Shown: in pieces, positions 8,266 to 51,634 of the stretch | Layout: each line of letters opens with the position of its first letter | Position numbering within the stretch: position 1 is the stretch's first letter | Source of the DNA: Planctomycetota bacterium | GTDB lineage: Bacteria; Planctomycetota; Phycisphaerae; Phycisphaerales; UBA5793 | Direction of reading: 5' to 3' | DNA length: 64,000 nt | Assembly (NCBI GenBank): GCA_963205185.1 | Contig: CAUJHZ010000047.1 | Coordinates: 62,001-126,000, forward strand | Notes under the pieces: model-generated | Databases searched by the model: none | Told to the model about the DNA's origin: nothing | What the model saw: the letters and a program-made list of their open reading frames with translations, nothing else | Position numbers and translations under genes: made by a program

Positions 8266-8297
8266 CATCCGATTCGACCGGCGGTCGAATCGGATGG
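8266..8297. repeat. Perfect 32-bp palindrome reaching into a ribosome binding site
   Basis: Two 16-bp arms without mismatch and without loop (left arm CCATCCGATTCGACCG). It begins 38 bp after the stop of the FG-GAP gene and its last two bases are the first two of the GGAGG ribosome binding site (8296-8300) of the CoA-binding gene. No T-run follows. It could be a dimeric regulator's operator, a hairpin hiding the ribosome binding site, or an RNA end element. Confidence 0.8.
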
Positions 8298-8305
8298 AGG
8301 CTCGC

Positions 8306-8665
8306 ATGCGCGTCATGATCATCGGCGCTTCGAACGATCGGCACAGGTTCGGCAACAAGGCGGTGCGGGCGCATCTGCGCCAGAAGCACACCGTGCTGCC
8401 GGTCAATCCGCACGAGCATCAGGTCGAAGGCCAGCGCGTCTGGCCCGACGTGAAAGAAGTGCCCGGTCCGATCGACCGCGCGCTCTTCTATGTGCCGGCG
8501 CACATCGGGCTCGAAGTCATCGGGCCGCTCGCGGAGCGCGGCGATGTGGGCGAAGTCTGGCTCAACCCCGGCGCCGAATCGGATGAACTCATCGCGCGGG
8601 CAAAGGAACTCGGCTTTGTTCCCATCTTGGCGTGCGCGATCATCGACATCGGCGAGCGGCCGTGA
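8306..8665 (+). CDS. CoA-binding domain protein (YccU-like)
   Basis: A 119-aa single Rossmann domain of the CoA-binding (succinyl-CoA-synthetase-like) family. It shows the N-terminal MIIGASNDRHRFGNKAVRA loop, the VNPHEHQVEG strand-turn and the EVWLNPGAESDELIARAKE helix. These proteins bind CoA or another nucleotide; their role is unclear. The ATG at 8306 follows GGAGG by 5 nt, so it is preferred to the in-frame ATG at 8294, which lies inside the palindrome. Confidence 0.88.
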   Translation: MRVMIIGASNDRHRFGNKAVRAHLRQKHTVLPVNPHEHQVEGQRVWPDVKEVPGPIDRALFYVPAHIGLEVIGPLAERGDVGEVWLNPGAESDELIARAKELGFVPILACAIIDIGERP

Positions 8666-8671
8666 GTCTCG

Positions 8672-8812
8672 GCAGCGGCCAATCTGCAGGTCATTCGCTC
8701 GGAACAGGGCAGGGTGCCCGAGCACGCGCGGCTGCTGACCGATCTGATGCACGCGCGCACTTCGAGATACAAAGCAGACTCTCACGCAGAGGCGCCGGGT
8801 TCGCAGAGTTGA
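8672..8812 (+). pseudogene. Copied 3' end of waaA (Kdo transferase)
   Basis: Just after the CoA-binding gene stop, a 46-codon stretch reads as the C-terminus of the Kdo transferase encoded at 18456-19763. Both contain VPEHARLLTDLMHARTS and HAEAPG shortly before the stop. At nucleotide level about 50 bases (GTGCCCGAG ... CGCACTTC) are identical. It has no start codon, no ribosome binding site and no catalytic domain, so it is a gene remnant or a fragment carried along with the repeat that overlaps its end. Confidence 0.8.
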
Positions 8813-8852
8813 AATCTGTACTTCTCTGCGCTCGCTGCGCCTCCGCGTGAGA
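8780..8852. repeat. Inverted-arm dispersed repeat, copy 1
   Basis: A 73-bp element with arms TCTCACGCAGAGGCGC at the left and GCGCCTCCGCGTGAGA at the right, one mismatch between them. A second copy lies at 18411-18488 and a half copy at 51602-51634. It overlaps the end of the waaA remnant. Confidence 0.75.
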
Positions 8853-8861
8853 TGCATTTGC

Positions 8862-10913
8862 CTACGGGAACCGATAACCCACGGCGTTGCTCACAGCGCA
8901 TGCAGCGTGATCGACCGCCTGGAGGATGATCGCGCGGCCGCTGGCGGCGCCGGGGATGCTGATGATCTTCGACGCGTAGCCGTTGGCGTCGGCGGTGCTG
9001 TGCGCTGCGATGCGCGGGTTGGCGATGTCGATGGTCAGCCCAGGGCAACCGGGCACGCCCGTCGAGCCGGTTGCAAAGCCATACACGAAGTACACGACAT
9101 TTCCCGGCGTCGCGCCGGCGGCCTGCAACTGGTTGTCGCGCCCCGCCACCCCTGGCCTCGGATGCACGGCGACGAAGCCGGCGCTTGTACCTTGAAACTC
9201 ATACGCGCCCATGTCGACGATGGGAATGGATCCGACGCCGGCGTCGGGCATGCCGGGATCATCAACGCGGCGCGGCAGCCCATCGAGATCGACCTCGGTT
9301 GTCACGAAGTCGTTATCACCCGCATCAATGCACGGCGAACTGGCGCTGAGGCCGTAGTTGCCGGTAAGCAGGTCTACGAACTTCGGATCGACGTCGAGGT
9401 TGCCAACGCCCGGCCATCCGCCCTCGACGTCACTGCGGCTCACCGTCACTCGTTCACTTCGGTCTACCATCGAACCAGGCGAATTCCCCCAGATGATGGA
9501 ATTGATGATCGAGCCGGCCGCGCCAGGCGCATCGGATATGAACGCCCCCCCGCCACCTTGCGACGAGGCGTTGGCGGCGAGCGTGCAGTTATTCAACTGA
9601 AGCGTCGACGTTTCGCTGAAGAGGCCCCCTCCAGCCAGACGGCCCTCGTTGTGGAGGAAGGCGCAGTTTGAGACGGAAGCGCCGGCTATGTGGTAGAGCC
9701 CTCCGCCGTACCGTGCCGCTCGATTCCCGTCAAAGGTTGAAGCAATCCAGTCGAACGAGCCCTCCGCTGTGAAGGCGCCGCCGCCTTCGAAAGCAGTATT
9801 CTGGACCAGCGTCACTCGTTCAAAGCGTGCCTCGGTGACTCCGTGCGCGGTCCCGGCATAGATACCACCGCCACTCACTCCATGGTTCGCTGTGAAGGCG
9901 GAGTCTCGGATGTCGAGCACGGTCGAGCCTCGTTCGGCTGAAAGACCTGCGCCTCGACCCGCTGCGTTGCCGCTGAAATCGCAATCCTCAACGACTAGGC
10001 TGGCACCGTAGTAAACGTATAGCCCTCCGCCAGAACTGTCCGCACCAAATGTCGGGTCGACCGAGCGAATGACGTTGTCTCGTAACGCTGTCCGTGTGAG
10101 AGTCGCGGAGGCGGCGTCCAGTAAGAGACCTCCTCCGTTTGCATGATCGGCCTCGATCCGGTTTCCAGCGATTTCACAGTCCATGATCCGAAGTTCCGTC
10201 ATCGCGGATGTGTAGATGCCTCCTCCTTCGCCAAGGAATCGATCGTTGGGCAGTAGGTGATAGTCGAGAATGTGGCAATTGATCATCTCAAGTGAGGATT
10301 GGTTAGCCCTCACACCTGCACCCCGTTCTCCGGAAGACCGGTTCTGACGCACCGTGGTTTGGATGAGGCGGATGACCGGGGTAGTCGAGATGGCATTGAT
10401 GCTGATGCCACCGGGCCCGATGTCGGAGAAACAGTTCTCGATGATGCAGTTGAGGATGTCAACATCGGCATCGGTGATGCAGATTCCTCCTGCCCACTCG
10501 TGCCGCCCGTTGCGGATCGTGAACCCTTCGATCGTGACGGGTCGATCATCCGGCAGGGTGCAGAAAGTGAAGCCGAAGCCATCGTTCTCACAGTCAATGA
10601 TGCAGTTGTCAGGCCCGCCGGACGAGCGGATGCTCATCTCCTTCTGGAAGAATTCGATGTTCTTGTTGCCGGGTCCGGTGTAGACGCCGTCGGCGACCTC
10701 GACGCTGTCGAAGTGATCGGCCGCGTTGATCCCCGCCTGGATAGTCGCCTTGGGTCCGTTGGGCGCCTCGCAGACCGGCGAGAGCCCGGTCCACGAATCA
10801 TCGCCGCACGAGCCGTTGACGTAGTACGTCGTCTGGCTGAGCGCGGTCGAAGTGATTGAAAGTACCGCGCTCATTGCGAGCGCACCGATGCCGCAGGTGA
10901 TTCGGATCGACAT
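8862..10913 (-). CDS. Secreted right-handed beta-helix protein with choice-of-anchor Q region and C-terminal module
   Basis: A 683-aa secreted protein. After a signal peptide (1-26, ending TALSQ) comes a parallel beta-helix with many short repeats of the kind 'GGGIYAG ... NTAFEGGGAF' (about 50-500). Then follows the YGLSASSPCIDAGDN ... VDMGAYEFQG segment typical of choice-of-anchor Q proteins, and finally a ~95-residue module (PGNVVYFVYGFATGSTG ... LQAVDHAACAVSNAV). It is probably a surface adhesin or polysaccharide-binding protein. The ATG at 10913 has a perfect AGGAGG 7 nt upstream; a longer reading from 11021 lacks one. Confidence 0.9.
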   Translation of the reverse strand: MSIRITCGIGALAMSAVLSITSTALSQTTYYVNGSCGDDSWTGLSPVCEAPNGPKATIQAGINAADHFDSVEVADGVYTGPGNKNIEFFQKEMSIRSSGGPDNCIIDCENDGFGFTFCTLPDDRPVTIEGFTIRNGRHEWAGGICITDADVDILNCIIENCFSDIGPGGISINAISTTPVIRLIQTTVRQNRSSGERGAGVRANQSSLEMINCHILDYHLLPNDRFLGEGGGIYTSAMTELRIMDCEIAGNRIEADHANGGGLLLDAASATLTRTALRDNVIRSVDPTFGADSSGGGLYVYYGASLVVEDCDFSGNAAGRGAGLSAERGSTVLDIRDSAFTANHGVSGGGIYAGTAHGVTEARFERVTLVQNTAFEGGGAFTAEGSFDWIASTFDGNRAARYGGGLYHIAGASVSNCAFLHNEGRLAGGGLFSETSTLQLNNCTLAANASSQGGGGAFISDAPGAAGSIINSIIWGNSPGSMVDRSERVTVSRSDVEGGWPGVGNLDVDPKFVDLLTGNYGLSASSPCIDAGDNDFVTTEVDLDGLPRRVDDPGMPDAGVGSIPIVDMGAYEFQGTSAGFVAVHPRPGVAGRDNQLQAAGATPGNVVYFVYGFATGSTGVPGCPGLTIDIANPRIAAHSTADANGYASKIISIPGAASGRAIILQAVDHAACAVSNAVGYRFP

Positions 10914-11227
10914 TGAAGTGCCTCCTGTCATGGCCGCTGTGCCCGGCCTTCCGGTGTATCCCGCCGGATGTGCTATCCGGACCGGGTATCCATCCGTACA
11001 CAATGATGGATGCGGATGCAACTGTCAAGCGAAATCTCAGCACATTTACCAAAACAGGGAAATGGGATTGACGCACAGGTGTGTCCGGAATGGCTTCCAC
11101 TGCAGCGCGCCTCGGCCGTGCGAGCACACTCAAACCTCCAGGCAGGAGCCGGCGCCTTCGCGCCTGCGCGGTTCGCCTCAGGCGGGTCGAAGCATGGCAC
11201 CATGGGCGCGGACTGATATCCTGATCC
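10914..11227. other. Divergent intergenic region
   Basis: This 314-bp stretch separates the beta-helix gene (minus) from the fatty-acid transporter gene (plus). It holds the candidate promoter at 11000-11028 for the minus-strand gene. Short frames here are not convincing as genes. Confidence 0.6.
11000..11028 (-). promoter_or_regulatory. Candidate promoter of the beta-helix gene
   Basis: On the minus strand a perfect -35 TTGACA (11028-11023) is followed after 17 bp by CATTGT (11005-11000), three of six matches to TATAAT. It lies about 85 bp upstream of the start codon at 10913. Confidence 0.4.
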
Positions 11228-12631
11228 ATGATCAGCAGACTCGGCTCCATCATTGCGGGCGTCTTTCGCAAGACGTGTCCTGATCCTTTCGTCATCGCCA
11301 TCCTGCTCACGCTGCTTACGGCTGGCCTGTGCTGGGCGTTGACGGACGCGGGGCCTCAGGAAGTCGTCGATGCATTCATCGGCGGCGGCGGGATGTGGAA
11401 CCTGCTGCTGTTCTCGATGCAGATGTGCCTCGTGCTGGTGACGGGGCACGCGCTGGCCTCCTCGCCGCCCGTGGCGTGGATGGTGCAGGCGTTGGCGCGC
11501 CAGCCGGGCAGCGCAGCGCAGGCCACGGCGCTGGTGGCGCTGATTGCCGGCGCGTGCGCGGTGGTCAACTGGGGCCTCGGCCTCATCGTCGGCGCGCTCA
11601 TGGCGCGCGAGGTCGGCCGGGCCATGGCGGGCAAGGGAATCCGCGTGCACTACCCGCTGCTGGCGGCCGCGGGGTACGTGGGGTTGATGGTCTGGCACGG
11701 CGGCATGTCTGGCAGCGCGCCGCTCAAGGTCACCGCCATGAGCGACCTGATCAACATCCTCGGCCCCGAACTGGCCGCGCAGATCGAGCCCATGCCGCTG
11801 CAGACGACCATCGGCTCGACCATGAACATCATCATCACCGGCGGCCTCGTGCTCGGCGCGCCGGCGCTGTTCATGCTGCTTCATCCCAAGAACCAGGGCG
11901 AGATCGAGACATTCACCGACTTTCGCGTGCCCACGTACATCGGCGAACCCGCGCTGGGCTCGGACGACCAGGATGCCCAACTGCACCTCGATGAGCCGCC
12001 CGCGAGCGTGCCCGAGTGGCTCGAGCGCCGGCCGTGGCTCGCGGGGCTGTTCGCCCTGTTTCTCGTCGCAGCGCTGGTGCAGGCGGTGCGGATGCTGCCG
12101 GGCATCGGCTCGGTCGATCTGAATCACATCAACCTAATCATGCTCATCCTCGGGCTGGCGATGCACGGCTCACCGGCGCGCTACGTGCGCGCCGTGGATG
12201 AAGCGGCGCGCGGCTGCGGCGGGATCATCCTGCAGTTCCCCCTCTACGCCGGCATCATGGGCATGATGAGCGGCACCGGGTTGAGCGCCCTGATCGCCAC
12301 GAAAATGGCCGGACTTGCCGATGCGCAGTCGCTGCCGCTCGTGACGTTCTTCAGCGCAAGCGTGGTGAATCTGTTCGTGCCCAGCGGCGGCGGTCAGTGG
12401 GCCGTGCAGGGGCCGATCGTGGTCAAGACCGCGATCGACGCGGGCATCGAACCGAGCAAGATGGTCATGGCCCTGGCGTACGGCGACCAGCTCACCAACA
12501 TGCTCCAGCCCTTCTGGGCTCTGCCCCTGCTGGCCATCACCGGAGTGCGGGCCCGCGACATCGTCGGCTACACGGCCATCGTGATGATCGCCGCGGCGGT
12601 GTGGATCGGCGTGTGGCTGGTTGTTTTCTGA
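11228..12631 (+). CDS. Short-chain fatty acid transporter, AtoE/TIGR00366 family
   Basis: A 467-aa polytopic inner-membrane protein with about 12 hydrophobic segments. The AtoE-type N-terminus (GVFRKTCPDPFVIAILLTLL), the internal GLIVGALMAREVGRAM and the C-terminal FVPSGGGQWAVQGPIV motif are characteristic. Family members import acetoacetate, butyrate or similar short-chain acids. No atoDAB genes are adjacent, so the substrate is open. There is no clear SD before the ATG; TATCCT lies 5 nt upstream, so it may be another leaderless gene. Confidence 0.9.
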   Translation: MISRLGSIIAGVFRKTCPDPFVIAILLTLLTAGLCWALTDAGPQEVVDAFIGGGGMWNLLLFSMQMCLVLVTGHALASSPPVAWMVQALARQPGSAAQATALVALIAGACAVVNWGLGLIVGALMAREVGRAMAGKGIRVHYPLLAAAGYVGLMVWHGGMSGSAPLKVTAMSDLINILGPELAAQIEPMPLQTTIGSTMNIIITGGLVLGAPALFMLLHPKNQGEIETFTDFRVPTYIGEPALGSDDQDAQLHLDEPPASVPEWLERRPWLAGLFALFLVAALVQAVRMLPGIGSVDLNHINLIMLILGLAMHGSPARYVRAVDEAARGCGGIILQFPLYAGIMGMMSGTGLSALIATKMAGLADAQSLPLVTFFSASVVNLFVPSGGGQWAVQGPIVVKTAIDAGIEPSKMVMALAYGDQLTNMLQPFWALPLLAITGVRARDIVGYTAIVMIAAAVWIGVWLVVF

Positions 12632-12632
12632 G

Positions 12633-12664
12633 AAGGCATCGAGGCATTGAGGCGTCAAGGCCTC
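12633..12664. repeat. GCATCGAGG-type short repeat, copy 1
   Basis: Imperfect tandem units (AGGCATCG / AGGCATTG / AGGCGTCA) directly after the transporter stop. The complement of the same unit, GATGCCTC, occurs in tandem at 46538-46560. Confidence 0.45.
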
Positions 12665-12699
12665 ACCGCCGCCGTCGTCGAGGCAGCGAGCGCCGCCCG

Positions 12700-13209
12700 T
12701 CACAGCCGCAGATGCATGTGATGCTCGGCCGCGCTCTCGCCTGCGATGCGGATCGCGTCGGGTTCGGTGCCCCACGTCGCGAAGCCAAGCGACTCGTACA
12801 GCGCGCGGGCGGCCGGCGTACGATCGGAAACGGACAGCCAGATGCACTCGACGCCCGGCCACGTGCGTGCCGTATTGATTGCGAGGTTCATCACCGCACG
12901 GCCAAGCCCCTTGCCTCGTGCTGCCGGCGTGACGTACACGCCCCAGATCAGCGCGCGGTGCCGCGTCTTGCACGGATCCAACCGCACGACCCCTGCCGAC
13001 GCAAGCAGGCGCGGCGCCGGCCCGTCGTCAACTGCGCCGGCAATGTCGTTCTCATTCTCGGCCAGCTTCGCGGCAATGGCGCCTTCCACCACCGCGAAGT
13101 CATCGTCGATACTCCGCAGAAACGCCCACGGCGACTCAACGAGCATCTCGCGGCGCAGGGCCGCATACATGGGAGCATCTTCGGGCGTGAGCAGCCGAAT
13201 CGCAGGCAT
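12700..13209 (-). CDS. GNAT-family N-acetyltransferase
   Basis: A 169-aa single GNAT domain. The acetyl-CoA binding motif A is visible as VYVTPAARGKGLGRAVM (Q/RxxGxG/A type) followed by VSDRTPAARALYESLGF, the usual helix and strand of motif B. The substrate cannot be predicted. The ATG at 13209 begins a typical 'MPAIRLLTPEDA' start; no strong SD is seen, and an in-frame start at 13233 is possible. Confidence 0.88.
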   Translation of the reverse strand: MPAIRLLTPEDAPMYAALRREMLVESPWAFLRSIDDDFAVVEGAIAAKLAENENDIAGAVDDGPAPRLLASAGVVRLDPCKTRHRALIWGVYVTPAARGKGLGRAVMNLAINTARTWPGVECIWLSVSDRTPAARALYESLGFATWGTEPDAIRIAGESAAEHHMHLRL

Positions 13210-17259: not shown

Positions 17260-17889
17260 ATGTTTCAACTCAACCTGAGAACTCGACTTGCAGCCGCCCT
17301 CCTGCTGGCTGCTCTGGCCGCATTCATCGCCCCGGCTTCGCAGAGCGCCTTCGCAGCGCCCGAGCCCAGCGCCCGGCCGCCGCGCTGGGAACTGCAGTTC
17401 GAGATCGTGCACGATCTGCGGCTCATCGAACTTGATGACCAGTGGTACTGGTTCATGACCTACCTCGTGACCAATCGCACCGGCGAGGACCAGGTCTTCG
17501 TGCCAAATGCGGTCCTCGCCACCGACGCCGGCGACATCGCCAAAGACGGCGACGAGGTGCCCTATGAAGTCACGCAGGAACTTCTCAAATTGATGAAGAA
17601 CCCGCTGCTCGAGTCGAAAAACCAGATCATCGGCCAGCTCAAGACCGGCAAGGAATACGCCCGCGAGGGACTGCTCGTGTGGAAAGCCGGCACGCTCGAT
17701 GATGTGCGCGATGTGCGCGTTTTCTTCGGCGGGCTCAGCAGCGACACGCAGGTCGTCAAGAACCCCGTCACCGGCGACGACGCCGTGGTGCGCAAGCACC
17801 TGGCGCGGCTGTACGACTGCCCCGGCGACCCCATGGCCGACCCGGCCGACGCCGTGCAGTTGCGCAAGCAGGAGTGGATCATGCGCTGA
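17260..17889 (+). CDS. Exported protein of unknown function
   Basis: A 209-aa protein with a clear signal peptide (residues 1-32, ending SAFA). The mature part contains a WELQFEIVHDLRLIELDDQ strand and a YLVTNRTGED segment like the secreted beta-sandwich proteins that describe conserved residues contacting other proteins, but I do not recognise the family. The ATG at 17260 has CGGGAGA about 7 nt upstream, and TATGCT at about 17213 could be its -10 box. It is upstream of the bL27 gene. Confidence 0.8.
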   Translation: MFQLNLRTRLAAALLLAALAAFIAPASQSAFAAPEPSARPPRWELQFEIVHDLRLIELDDQWYWFMTYLVTNRTGEDQVFVPNAVLATDAGDIAKDGDEVPYEVTQELLKLMKNPLLESKNQIIGQLKTGKEYAREGLLVWKAGTLDDVRDVRVFFGGLSSDTQVVKNPVTGDDAVVRKHLARLYDCPGDPMADPADAVQLRKQEWIMR

Positions 17890-17956
17890 TGCGCGGCTAC
17901 CCTTGCCGGCTTTTCCCGGGATTCCGGGAGTGACTTGAATTTACGGAGCATTCGTC

Positions 17957-18244
17957 ATGGCACATAAAAAGGGACAGGGCTCGACCAAGAACGGCCGGGA
18001 TTCCAACCCCCAATACCGCGGCGTCAAACTGTTCGGCGGCCAGCGGGCCCAGGCCGGCTCGATCATCGTCCGCCAGGTCGGCACGCCCTACAAGGCTGGG
18101 TACATGGTCAAGCGCGCCAAGGATGATACGCTCTTCGCCATGTGCGACGGCACCGTGCGCTTCCGCAACCGCACCGTGGACATCATCCCCACCGATGATT
18201 CGATCCCGCGCTACACCGCCGTGGAAACGGCGACGAGCAACTGA
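17957..18244 (+). CDS. rpmA: 50S ribosomal protein bL27
   Basis: 95 aa, the usual length. It has the conserved start [17 protein letters not shown], without the cleavable extension seen in Firmicutes, and the [28 protein letters not shown] core. Its N-terminal tail reaches the peptidyl-transferase centre. GGAG sits about 9 nt before the ATG. Unusually, rplU (bL21) is not directly upstream; an exported-protein gene is there instead. A strong terminator follows. Confidence 0.97.
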
Positions 18245-18271
18245 CCGGCGCGACCGAGTTTGAATACCTTG

Positions 18272-18309
18272 CAGGAGCGGCCGGATTGGGGCCGCTCCTG
18301 TTCGTTTTT
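18272..18309 (+). terminator. Rho-independent terminator of rpmA
   Basis: An 11-bp perfect stem (CAGGAGCGGCC and its complement, 18272-18282 and 18290-18300) with a 7-nt loop, followed by TTCGTTTTT. Confidence 0.88.
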
Positions 18310-18410
18310 CTACTGGATCGGGCCGCCACTGAGCAGCGGCCCAGCGATGCTGAGCGCGAGTGCCAACGCAGCGTGCGGCACTTGGATCGCGACTCCCAGA
18401 TCCCAAGGCA

Positions 18411-18488
18411 TCTCACGCGGAGGCGCACAGAGCGCAGAGAATCCCGACTGGGATTTCAATTCTGCGCACCCGGCGCCTCTGCGTGAGA
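18411..18488. repeat. Inverted-arm dispersed repeat, copy 2
   Basis: A 78-bp element with arms TCTCACGCGGAGGCGC and GCGCCTCTGCGTGAGA and an internal small hairpin (AATCCC/GGGATT). It covers the last ten codons and stop of waaA, so the waaA C-terminus appears to be encoded by the repeat. Confidence 0.75.
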
Positions 18489-19763
18489 CCCTGCTTTGGA
18501 TCCTGAAGTGCGCGCGTGCATCAGATCGGTCAGCAGCCGCGCGTGCTCGGGCACGCTGCCCTGCTTCGACCGGATGACTTCGAGCCCGGCGGCGCCGAGT
18601 TGCTCGCGCCGCTGGGGGCCTGCAAGCAGCTGGGCAATGATCTGCGGCAGATGCTGCATGGTCGTCTGCACCATCCCCCCGCCGTCGAGCAGGGCGCGGG
18701 CCACGCTTTCGAAGTTGCGCACATCCGGGCCGACGATGACGGCCTTGCCCAACGCGATGGGCTCCATCATGTCGCTGCCGCGCTGGTTGGAGAACGTGCG
18801 GCCGACGATGACGAGATCGGCCAGCGCGTACGCGGCGCGGAGTTCGCCGATCGAGTCGAGCAGAAAGCGGAAAACGTACCTGTCCCGTTTATTCGGCGCA
18901 TTGTTGACCTGCGAGCGCCGCACACACGGCTGCAATACGCGCGCCGCTTCGTCGAAATGCTCGGGCTTGCGCGGCGCAACGATCAATTGGACATCAGCGG
19001 GCACGGCGGCCGCGATCAGCCCTTCCTCGCCCGAGCCCGTCGAACCCGCGACGACGATCGGACGCGTGCGATCGAGCCCAAACAGATCCGCAAGCCGGTC
19101 CGCCGCTTCGCGCACACCTTCCTGCCCTTGCAGCGCGTTGTCCCACTTCATGGTCCCGGCGACGCGCACGTGCTCGGGCCGGGCGCCCACGGCGATGAAT
19201 CGCTCGGCGATCGCCTCATCCTGCGCCACCACCAGGCTCAGCCGGCGAAACGACGGGCGCACGAGCGGCCCGAGCCGCCGGTAGCGCGGGAAACTCCGAT
19301 CGGAAAGCCGGCCGTTGATCACGGCGACGGGGATCCCCCGCTGCTCGCACAGGCGCGTGAAGTTCGGCCAGACTTCGAGTTCGACGAGGGCGACGAGATC
19401 CGGCCGCGTGGCGTCGAGAAATCGACGCACCGCCCGGCTGAAGTCCAGCGGGTAGCGCACCACGGCGTGGTCGTCGGCAAAGAGCGAGCGGGCCCGGGCC
19501 AGGCCGGTGTCGGTCGTCGTCGCGATGACGATCTCAAACTGCCGGGCCAGAAGCGCGACCAGGCTGCGGATCGCGTTCACCTCGCCGACGCTGACAGCGT
19601 GAAACAGGAGGCGCGGCCGGCGCGGCGGGGGCAGCGGAGCCACGTGGCCGAGCCGGGCCCGCAGATCGATGCGCGGCTTGCCGCGCAGCGGCCGCACAAT
19701 GAGCCACAGCGGCGCCGTGACAAGCGCAGTCAGGAAATAGACAACATCCACCACCAGCGACAT
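18456..19763 (-). CDS. waaA: 3-deoxy-D-manno-octulosonic acid (Kdo) transferase
   Basis: A 435-aa GT-B (GT30) glycosyltransferase that adds Kdo to lipid A precursor at the inner membrane. One N-terminal membrane anchor (residues 1-22) is followed by FHAVSVGEVNAIRSLVALL (family motif with the catalytic Glu in VGE), LVELEVWPNFTRLCEQRG, and the C-terminal GGxxMMEPIALGKAV-like region (GSDMMEPIALGKAVIVGP). Its presence implies an LPS-bearing envelope. The last ~10 residues come from the dispersed repeat. TAGAAT lies 7 nt before the ATG and no SD is visible. Confidence 0.93.
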   Translation of the reverse strand: MSLVVDVVYFLTALVTAPLWLIVRPLRGKPRIDLRARLGHVAPLPPPRRPRLLFHAVSVGEVNAIRSLVALLARQFEIVIATTTDTGLARARSLFADDHAVVRYPLDFSRAVRRFLDATRPDLVALVELEVWPNFTRLCEQRGIPVAVINGRLSDRSFPRYRRLGPLVRPSFRRLSLVVAQDEAIAERFIAVGARPEHVRVAGTMKWDNALQGQEGVREAADRLADLFGLDRTRPIVVAGSTGSGEEGLIAAAVPADVQLIVAPRKPEHFDEAARVLQPCVRRSQVNNAPNKRDRYVFRFLLDSIGELRAAYALADLVIVGRTFSNQRGSDMMEPIALGKAVIVGPDVRNFESVARALLDGGGMVQTTMQHLPQIIAQLLAGPQRREQLGAAGLEVIRSKQGSVPEHARLLTDLMHARTSGSKAGSHAEAPGAQN

Positions 19764-19770
19764 GGCCGGG

Positions 19771-19776
19771 ATTCTA
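19771..19776 (-). promoter_or_regulatory. -10 box of a probably leaderless gene (waaA)
   Basis: On the minus strand TAGAAT is placed 7 nt before the waaA ATG (19763). The opposite-strand SMR gene has the same layout, so the two promoters lie back to back. Confidence 0.45.
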
Positions 19777-19808
19777 CTGCGGCGGGTCGGCCGCCGATCG
19801 ACGCCCCG

Positions 19809-19814
19809 TAGAAT
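19809..19814 (+). promoter_or_regulatory. -10 box of a probably leaderless gene (SMR)
   Basis: TAGAAT is placed 6 nt before the ATG at 19821, with no Shine-Dalgarno sequence. Confidence 0.45.
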
Positions 19815-19820
19815 CGCGGC

Positions 19821-20192
19821 ATGACCATCCTTTACATGCTGCTGGCGATCGCGTTCGAGACCGGCTGGGCGGTGGCGATGAAGGCTTCCCATGGGCTGAC
19901 CCGGCCGCTGCCGGCGGCCATCACCATCGTCTGCTACCTGCTGAGCGTGGTTTTTCTCGCCATGGCGGCCAAGCGGATGGACCTGGGGGCCGCTTACGCC
20001 ATCTGGGCCGGGTCCGGGGCGGTGCTGATCGCGGTGGCGGGGGCGGCGGCGTTCGGCGAGACCCTCTCGCCGGGCCGGGTGATCTCGATCGGCCTGATTG
20101 TCGCCGGGATCGTGGGGATTCATCTCTCCGGCAGGCCGCCGCAGGCGGCTCAGACGGGCCAGCAGGCCGCTTCTTTGGCCGATTCAGGCTGA
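19821..20192 (+). CDS. Small multidrug resistance (SMR) family transporter
   Basis: 123 aa with four membrane helices, as in EmrE/Gdx. The essential membrane Glu is E13 (LLAIAFETGWAVAMK). The family motif AAYAIWAGSGAVLIAV is present. Gdx/SugE (guanidinium export) or EmrE-type (quaternary ammonium) cannot be separated with confidence, and the subgroup is left open. It is divergent from waaA. Confidence 0.92.
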   Translation: MTILYMLLAIAFETGWAVAMKASHGLTRPLPAAITIVCYLLSVVFLAMAAKRMDLGAAYAIWAGSGAVLIAVAGAAAFGETLSPGRVISIGLIVAGIVGIHLSGRPPQAAQTGQQAASLADSG

Positions 20193-20357
20193 AGAGCCAA
20201 GGTTGGAGCGGCGATCAGCCAATATTTTCTCCCGGTCGTGACGCCCAAAACCGGGTCGTGCGTCTACTGTTTGTGATCGGCACACATGGCTCACGCCGGG
20301 CCGCTGAGCCCGGCTTATCAGACGCGTTCGAGACGGCGCAAGAGAGGGGTTGACCTC

Positions 20358-47812: not shown

Positions 47813-48265
47813 ATGCCCGGCACCTTCTCCCAACTGCTGCTGCACATCGTCTTCTCCACGAAACACCGCCAAACCTGGATCGCCGATGAACTCGCGCCGC
47901 AACTCCACGCCTACCTCGGCGGCATCGTCCGATCCGAGAAAGGAACCGCATACGAAATCGGCGGCGTCGAAGATCACGTCCACCTGCTCGTTCGCTGGCG
48001 GCCCGATGATTCAATCTCCAACCTGCTCCGCAACATCAAAACACGCTCATCGCGCTGGATTCATGAAACCCGCCCCGATCTCAAGTCATTTGCGTGGCAG
48101 GAGGGTTACTCCGTCTTCTCCGTGAGCAAGTCGCAGGAGCAGGCCGTGAAGAACTACATTCAGAGGCAAGTCGAGCATCACGCGCGCGAAGACTTTGCAG
48201 CGGAACTCATCCGCCTGCTCGACGCGCACAAAGTCGAATACGATCGGCGCTATGTACTTGACTGA
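47813..48265 (+). CDS. IS200/REP-associated Y1 transposase
   Basis: A 150-aa single-domain HUH endonuclease. The metal-binding His pair is H55-V-H57 (EDHVHLLV) and the likely nucleophile is Tyr115 (KNYIQRQ). It resembles TnpA_IS200/RAYT proteins that cut single-stranded DNA at hairpins. The gene looks intact. Confidence 0.9.
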   Translation: MPGTFSQLLLHIVFSTKHRQTWIADELAPQLHAYLGGIVRSEKGTAYEIGGVEDHVHLLVRWRPDDSISNLLRNIKTRSSRWIHETRPDLKSFAWQEGYSVFSVSKSQEQAVKNYIQRQVEHHAREDFAAELIRLLDAHKVEYDRRYVLD

Positions 48266-51601: not shown

Positions 51602-51634
51602 TTCTCACGCAGAGACGCAGAGATCGCGGAGAGG
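51602..51634. repeat. Half copy of the TCTCACGC dispersed repeat
   Basis: TTCTCACGCAGAGACGCAG begins directly after the M16 stop and has no inverted partner. It is copy 3 of the repeat at 8780 and 18411. Confidence 0.6.

What the first reader, a model, noticed from the sequence alone, without database searches (positions are those of the whole stretch)
8672..8852. 3' end of waaA copied 10 kb away together with a dispersed repeat
The sequence after the CoA-binding gene encodes the last ~46 codons of waaA with ~50 identical consecutive bases, including the same in-repeat stop region, but nothing upstream. Both copies end in the TCTCACGC inverted-arm element, which suggests the repeat carried the tail with it or that recombination deleted a second waaA.
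Basis: seen in the sequence. Interest (0 to 1): 0.58.

Follow-up and report, generated by a model that had tools for sequence, protein, structure and literature searches.

The report
Relic of a copied gene end
A 3' scrap of the lipopolysaccharide gene waaA, with the DNA hairpin at its end, was copied into a gap between two unrelated genes as part of a 2.5 kb insertion, and is most likely a dead relic of recombination, not a new gene part.

Summary
In detail: window 8690-8858 (+) matches the 3' end of waaA at 18578-18405 (-) at 86% (174 columns, longest identical run 50), including the stop codon inside a hairpin repeat. Relatives give no sign that a second whole waaA stood here: in 4 of 4 congeners the CoA-binding gene lies 36-40 bp from the next gene (AtoE-like), and each of 6 family genomes has one full waaA. 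In the window that gap holds about 2.54 kb (8670-11212): waaA tail, whole hairpin, and a beta-helix gene pointing the other way. In the closest relative the beta-helix counterpart (83-86%), also ending in such a hairpin, sits beside dnaE, where the window's genome has none. Best reading: a recombination or template-switch joint at the hairpin, waaA tail to beta-helix 3' end, lodged in the CoA/AtoE gap. waaA's own 3' end plus hairpin is itself a recombinant patch, resembling a distant congener. The tail follows the CoA-binding gene in frame but after its intact stop, so a domain is unlikely. Ordinary genome scarring, of modest interest because a hairpin marks the joint.

The parts
8294..8665 (+). 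CoA-binding protein gene (CoA_binding_2), intact, left border of the insertion
   Evidence: Pfam PF13380 E 6.6e-23; orthologues in 5 of 5 genomes of the genus
8670..11212 (.). insertion of about 2543 bp absent from relatives (borders approximate, read from blastn block ends)
   Evidence: block ends against L028 (G003); spacer comparison with G001-G004
8690..8779 (+). copy of the last waaA codons upstream of the hairpin; may begin as early as 8672
   Evidence: 80/90 bases equal to the window's waaA
8780..8852 (.). hairpin (inverted repeat TCTCACGC...GCGTGAGA) with the copied stop codon TGA at 8810-8812
   Evidence: RNA fold of 8776-8860 -45.1 kcal/mol, z -5.6; 64/73 equal to waaA's hairpin
8862..11021 (-). 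beta-helix protein gene (choice-of-anchor Q domain), 3' end against the hairpin; counterpart beside dnaE in G003
   Evidence: Pfam PF13229 E 3.5e-19, NCBIfam NF041518 above cut-off, 83-86% to G003:C11
11228..12631 (+). AtoE-like transporter gene (TIGR00366, below its curated cut-off; 'AtoE-like' is a recalled name), right border; directly follows the CoA-binding gene in relatives
18456..19763 (-). intact waaA (Kdo transferase); stop codon lies inside the hairpin
   Evidence: Pfam PF04413 E 1.4e-54; the longest NCBIfam PRK05749-type matches end at residue 415-418 of 435
18411..18488 (.). hairpin at the end of the genuine waaA
   Evidence: RNA fold of 18401-18492 -58 kcal/mol, z -6.6
18362..18671 (.). 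recombinant patch: waaA 3' quarter and hairpin resemble G001, not the closer relative G003
   Evidence: 63 sites shared with G001 alone vs 18 with G003 alone inside 18350-18720, 70 vs 353 outside; scan statistic reached by 0 of 2000 permutations

Best explanation
The feature is a non-coding relic: a partial duplication of the waaA 3' end plus its hairpin, forming the left end of a 2.5 kb insertion that also carries a beta-helix gene. Inferred mechanism: a hairpin of the same family stood at the 3' end of the beta-helix gene (as it still does in G003); recombination or template switching between that hairpin and waaA's hairpin joined waaA tail + hairpin to the beta-helix 3' end, and the joint molecule was lodged by illegitimate (near homology-free) joining in the gap between the CoA-binding and AtoE-like genes. 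Shown: the insertion, its contents, the absence from relatives, the other location in G003, the hairpins at both genes. Inferred: the order of events and the joining mechanism.
For: Empty site in 4 of 4 congeners. Beta-helix counterpart beside dnaE in G003 with a full hairpin at its 3' end, while the window's genome has 11 bp in place of those 4665 bp. Similarity to waaA runs through the whole hairpin and similarity to the G003 beta-helix region begins in the hairpin's right arm at window 8824, so the switch lies in or next to that arm. The copy groups with the window's own waaA tail against G001 and G003 (ultrafast bootstrap 92, four sequences) and has the longer branch (0.099 vs 0.041), as expected for a copy freed of coding constraint. 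No direct or inverted word of 7 bp or more is shared by the ends of the insertion, which speaks for illegitimate joining and against a transposon.
Against: No genome was found in which the beta-helix gene lies next to waaA, so the joined intermediate is unseen. The right 150 bp of the insertion (11062-11212) match nothing fetched. The 50-base identical run is longer than even decay would give (0.3%), so later gene conversion or constraint is possible. The tree rests on about 170 columns and four sequences, and over the tail alone the window's waaA is nearer to G001 (82/90) than to the copy (80/90).
Confidence: 0.7

Rival explanations
1. A second full waaA once stood beside the CoA-binding gene and was deleted, leaving its tail.
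For: Tail and hairpin are in the right order and the frame is still open.
Against: 4 of 4 congeners have a 36-40 bp spacer there; one full waaA per genome in 6 of 6 genomes.
Confidence: 0.07
2. The whole block waaA tail-hairpin-beta-helix was built in another species, where the beta-helix gene stands downstream of waaA, and came in by homology-facilitated illegitimate recombination.
For: Exchange between lineages is seen at the waaA 3' end itself; accessory secreted-protein genes turn over around the AtoE-like gene.
Against: The copy groups with the window's own tail; the flanking CoA-binding and AtoE-like genes stay nearest to G003 with no clear donor-like stretch (one 60-base step of the CoA-binding gene, 8460-8519, is nearer to G004); no donor found.
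Confidence: 0.2
3. The tail is a functional element: a C-terminal domain read by stop-codon readthrough of the CoA-binding gene, or a conserved RNA element.
For: The tail's frame follows the CoA-binding stop in phase (TGA 8663-8665, then 48 open codons); the 50-base identical run; strong hairpin.
Against: In-phase by chance is 1 in 3; the stop is intact; 4 of 4 congeners lack the tail; 5 of 8 changed codons in 8690-8779 alter the residue (counted by eye).
Confidence: 0.03

Closest known systems
Orphaned 3' ends and displaced immunity genes at Vibrio cholerae T6SS and Rhs loci, explained there by homology-facilitated illegitimate recombination (PMC5361080, passages read)
   Same: A 3' gene piece is left beside newly arrived genes after one-sided or illegitimate recombination.
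   Different: Here the piece comes from a housekeeping gene 10 kb away and in inverted orientation, a hairpin marks the joint, and no homologous anchor was found.
REP/REPIN hairpins with RAYT (Y1) transposases (PMC3116915 and PMC6006769, search listing and start of abstract only)
   Same: Dispersed intergenic hairpins; Y1_Tnp genes are present in 5 of 5 genomes of the genus.
   Different: Only 6 exact 12-base arms in the genome; a longer palindrome; no Y1_Tnp match in the insertion; the REP tetranucleotide (recalled) was not sought.
Palindromic repeats inserted into reading frames, such as the Rickettsia palindromic elements (recalled, no call)
   Same: waaA's last 10 codons and stop lie within the hairpin in the window, with the same layout in G001 and G003.
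   Different: Sits at the very end of the gene, adding about 10 residues, not inside the protein.

Membership tests
WaaA (Kdo transferase), for the copy at 8690-8812 | N-terminal glycosyltransferase domain PF04413 | tested here: not met
   Only residues 379/390-435 are matched; the domain lies at residues 154-328 of the 555-residue open frame, upstream of the part copied
Transposon or cassette with its own ends | terminal repeats and target-site duplication | tested here: not met
   no shared direct or inverted word of 7 bp or more between the two ends of the window's insertion
Transposon or cassette with its own ends | transposase or integrase gene inside | tested here: not met
   the only open frame inside that was given a family match is the beta-helix gene; shorter overlapping frames were not scanned; no Y1_Tnp match there
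Homology-facilitated illegitimate recombination product | one homologous anchor of foreign origin, other end illegitimate | tested here: inconclusive
   flanks show no clear donor-like stretch; illegitimate ends plausible
REP/REPIN-RAYT | many near-identical short hairpins with a cognate Y1 transposase next to one of them | tested here: inconclusive
   low copy number; a Y1_Tnp gene at window 47825-48169 lies 3.4 kb from a half hairpin at 51603

The most novel reading that the evidence does not exclude
This hairpin family works as a recombination platform: by giving unrelated gene ends the same 70-base palindrome it lets gene 3' ends and accessory secreted-protein genes be re-joined and exchanged between species, the waaA tail copy and the recombinant patch at waaA's own end being two products of it.
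Probability: 0.15. Interest if true: 0.5.

Novelty: new member of a known kind. Interest (0 to 1): 0.22.

Why it matters
It warns annotators not to read the tail as a domain or as a lost waaA paralogue, and gives one bounded case in Phycisphaerales where a dispersed hairpin lies at a recombination joint and inside an interspecies recombinant patch. Beyond that it is ordinary genome scarring.

Tried and rejected
Second-waaA deletion: rejected on relatives' gene order. Assembly duplication: unlikely, since 25 of 174 columns differ and both borders are syntenic with G003; reads were not available. Plasmid or phage origin: no match of the 2562-base stretch 8666-11227 in the plasmid and phage collections. 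Staggered-break inversion of the 10 kb between the two copies (which would leave an inverted duplication at both ends): considered and rejected, because the genes between keep the same order and orientation in G003 and G001.

Search of 201 genomes of the order (drawn evenly from a larger group, 4 candidates scored per genome) for tail plus hairpin: 7 of 201 had a match at E 1e-5; waaA tails only in G000, G001 and G003. Of the other four, three (G055, G090, G097) match in the hairpin, and one (G015) is a 39-base match in the tail part without waaA in the 3 kb around it. Paper searches: (one paper, on HuH endonucleases; 19 papers, 6 listed) were the only ones aimed at such repeats or at waaA remnants; by title and abstract start none of those listed reports a waaA tail beside a repeat, which says little.

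Full report
1. The observation. The window lies on a 127 kb contig of a 4.55 Mb, 76-contig genome (G000). A blastn of 8600-8900 against the window finds 8690-8858 (+) aligned to 18578-18405 (-), 150 of 174 columns identical, E 1e-55. The target is the 3' end of waaA (18456-19763, minus strand; Pfam PF04413; all five NCBIfam hits are of PRK05749 type, all below their curated cut-offs). The longest identical run is 50 bases, which random placement of the differing columns gives in 0.3% of trials. The copied frame runs 48 codons from 8666 to the TGA at 8810-8812, at the place of waaA's own stop; it is in phase with the CoA-binding gene but comes after that gene's intact TGA at 8663-8665. In the whole genome the tail occurs only at these two places.

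2. What surrounds it. In the four other genomes of the genus held (G001-G004) the CoA-binding gene (5 of 5 genomes) is followed after 36-40 bp by a 467-residue (495 in G001) AtoE-like transporter gene. In the window the same two genes are 2562 bp apart: blastn block ends against G003 put the extra DNA at about 8670-11212. It holds, left to right, the waaA tail, the complete hairpin 8780-8852, a beta-helix gene on the minus strand (8862-11021), and about 150 bp that match nothing fetched. G000, G001 and G003 have waaA in the same orientation and order relative to these genes; in G002 and G004 the two genes are on separate contigs, so their arrangement there is not known. Six of six genomes of the family have one full waaA.

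3. The beta-helix gene moved or arrived separately. Its closest counterparts are in G003 on contig C11, as two tandem genes beside dnaE (named from its sequence, recalled): the window's 3' part matches one at 83% and its 5' part the other at 86%. In G003 a complete hairpin of the same family stands at the 3' end of that pair. In the window's genome the dnaE site has 11 bp instead of the 4665 bp of G003. G001 and G004 also lack such an insertion by the spacing of matches (about 155 and 255 bp), and G002 has an unmatched spacer of about 0.8 kb without a beta-helix match at E 1e-5. So the pair beside dnaE is most simply particular to G003 and the insertion in the CoA/AtoE gap particular to G000, among five genomes. 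Three other paralogues (G000:C46, G003:C2, G003:C13; 73-74% in their best stretches) show no hairpin of this family downstream.

4. The hairpin. Both copies in the window fold far better than shuffles (z -5.6 and -6.6). The exact 12-base arm occurs 6 times in G000, 5 in G003, 2 in G002, 1 in G001, 0 in G004, against 0 to 1 for the reversed control. Near-perfect palindromes of the family also occur in G002 and in a genome of another family of the order. In the window, and with the same layout in G001 and G003, waaA's last 10 codons and stop lie in the hairpin, whereas waaA of G002, G004 and G005 ends without it. The hairpin has no run of T after it, so it is not a textbook intrinsic terminator (by eye).

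5. Where the joint lies. Similarity to waaA continues through the right arm to about 8858; similarity to G003's beta-helix region starts at 8824, in the right arm. The switch is therefore in or next to that arm. The left border is at 8670-8690: bases 8672-8689 equal waaA at 9 of 18, too few to place it. No direct or inverted word of 7 bp or more is shared by the two ends.

6. Origin of the copy. Over the tail the copy equals the window's waaA at 80/90, G001 at 76/90, G003 at 73/90; over the hairpin 64/73, 58/73, 54/73 (gap columns left out). A four-sequence tree puts copy and window waaA together (ultrafast bootstrap 92), the copy on the longer branch. Against this, within the tail alone the window's waaA is nearer to G001 (82/90) than to the copy (80/90). 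The data favour copying from the window's own lineage, not strongly.

7. An unexpected result. waaA's own 3' end is a recombinant. Elsewhere in 17700-20300 the window's genome shares 353 sites with G003 alone against 70 with G001 alone; inside 18350-18720 it is 18 against 63 (Fisher p 8e-27, region chosen after looking; a scan statistic that allows for the choice was reached by 0 of 2000 permutations and gives 18362-18671). So this segment, hairpin included, was probably exchanged between the G000 and G001 lineages, in a direction not determined. The copy is nearer to this type of tail than to G003's, so it was probably made after, or together with, that exchange.

8. Reading. The tail is most likely a relic: the stop before it is intact, the first possible start codon in its frame (GTG at codon 17, read by eye) would leave 32 residues, 4 of 4 congeners lack it, and 5 of 8 changed codons alter the residue (by eye). 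The most likely history is a hairpin-to-hairpin joint between waaA's end and the beta-helix gene's end, lodged in the CoA/AtoE gap by illegitimate joining. The anatomy and the comparison are shown; the mechanism is inferred. As a kind of event it resembles the orphaned 3' ends at T6SS and Rhs loci (PMC5361080, passages read).

9. Scores. Interest 0.22: a well-bounded but ordinary scar; the hairpin's presence at both the joint and the recombinant patch is the part worth a follow-up.

Noticed in passing
window 18362-18671: The 3' quarter of the genuine waaA with its hairpin is a recombinant patch, closer to the distant congener G001 than to the close one G003.
   Followed up: yes
window 12631-12700; L028 5642-7847; L029 3707-11889: The other side of the AtoE-like gene holds islands of secreted-like protein genes, 2.2 kb in G003 and 8.2 kb in G001, but only about 70 bp in the window; the contigs of G002 and G004 end there.
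   Followed up: partly
window 47825-48169 and 51603: A Y1_Tnp (PF01797) gene lies 3.4 kb from a half hairpin arm; the same pairing occurs in G003 (C13:527350 and C13:531132). G000 has 7 Y1_Tnp matches in all.
   Followed up: no
L089 around 2022 and L092 around 1945: Near-perfect long palindromes of the same hairpin family in G002 and in a genome of another family of the order, suggesting a widely dispersed element.
   Followed up: partly
L059 (G003:C11:89920-94482): Two tandem beta-helix genes in G003; the window's single gene resembles one at its 3' part and the other at its 5' part, as if a tandem pair had collapsed or expanded by recombination.
   Followed up: no
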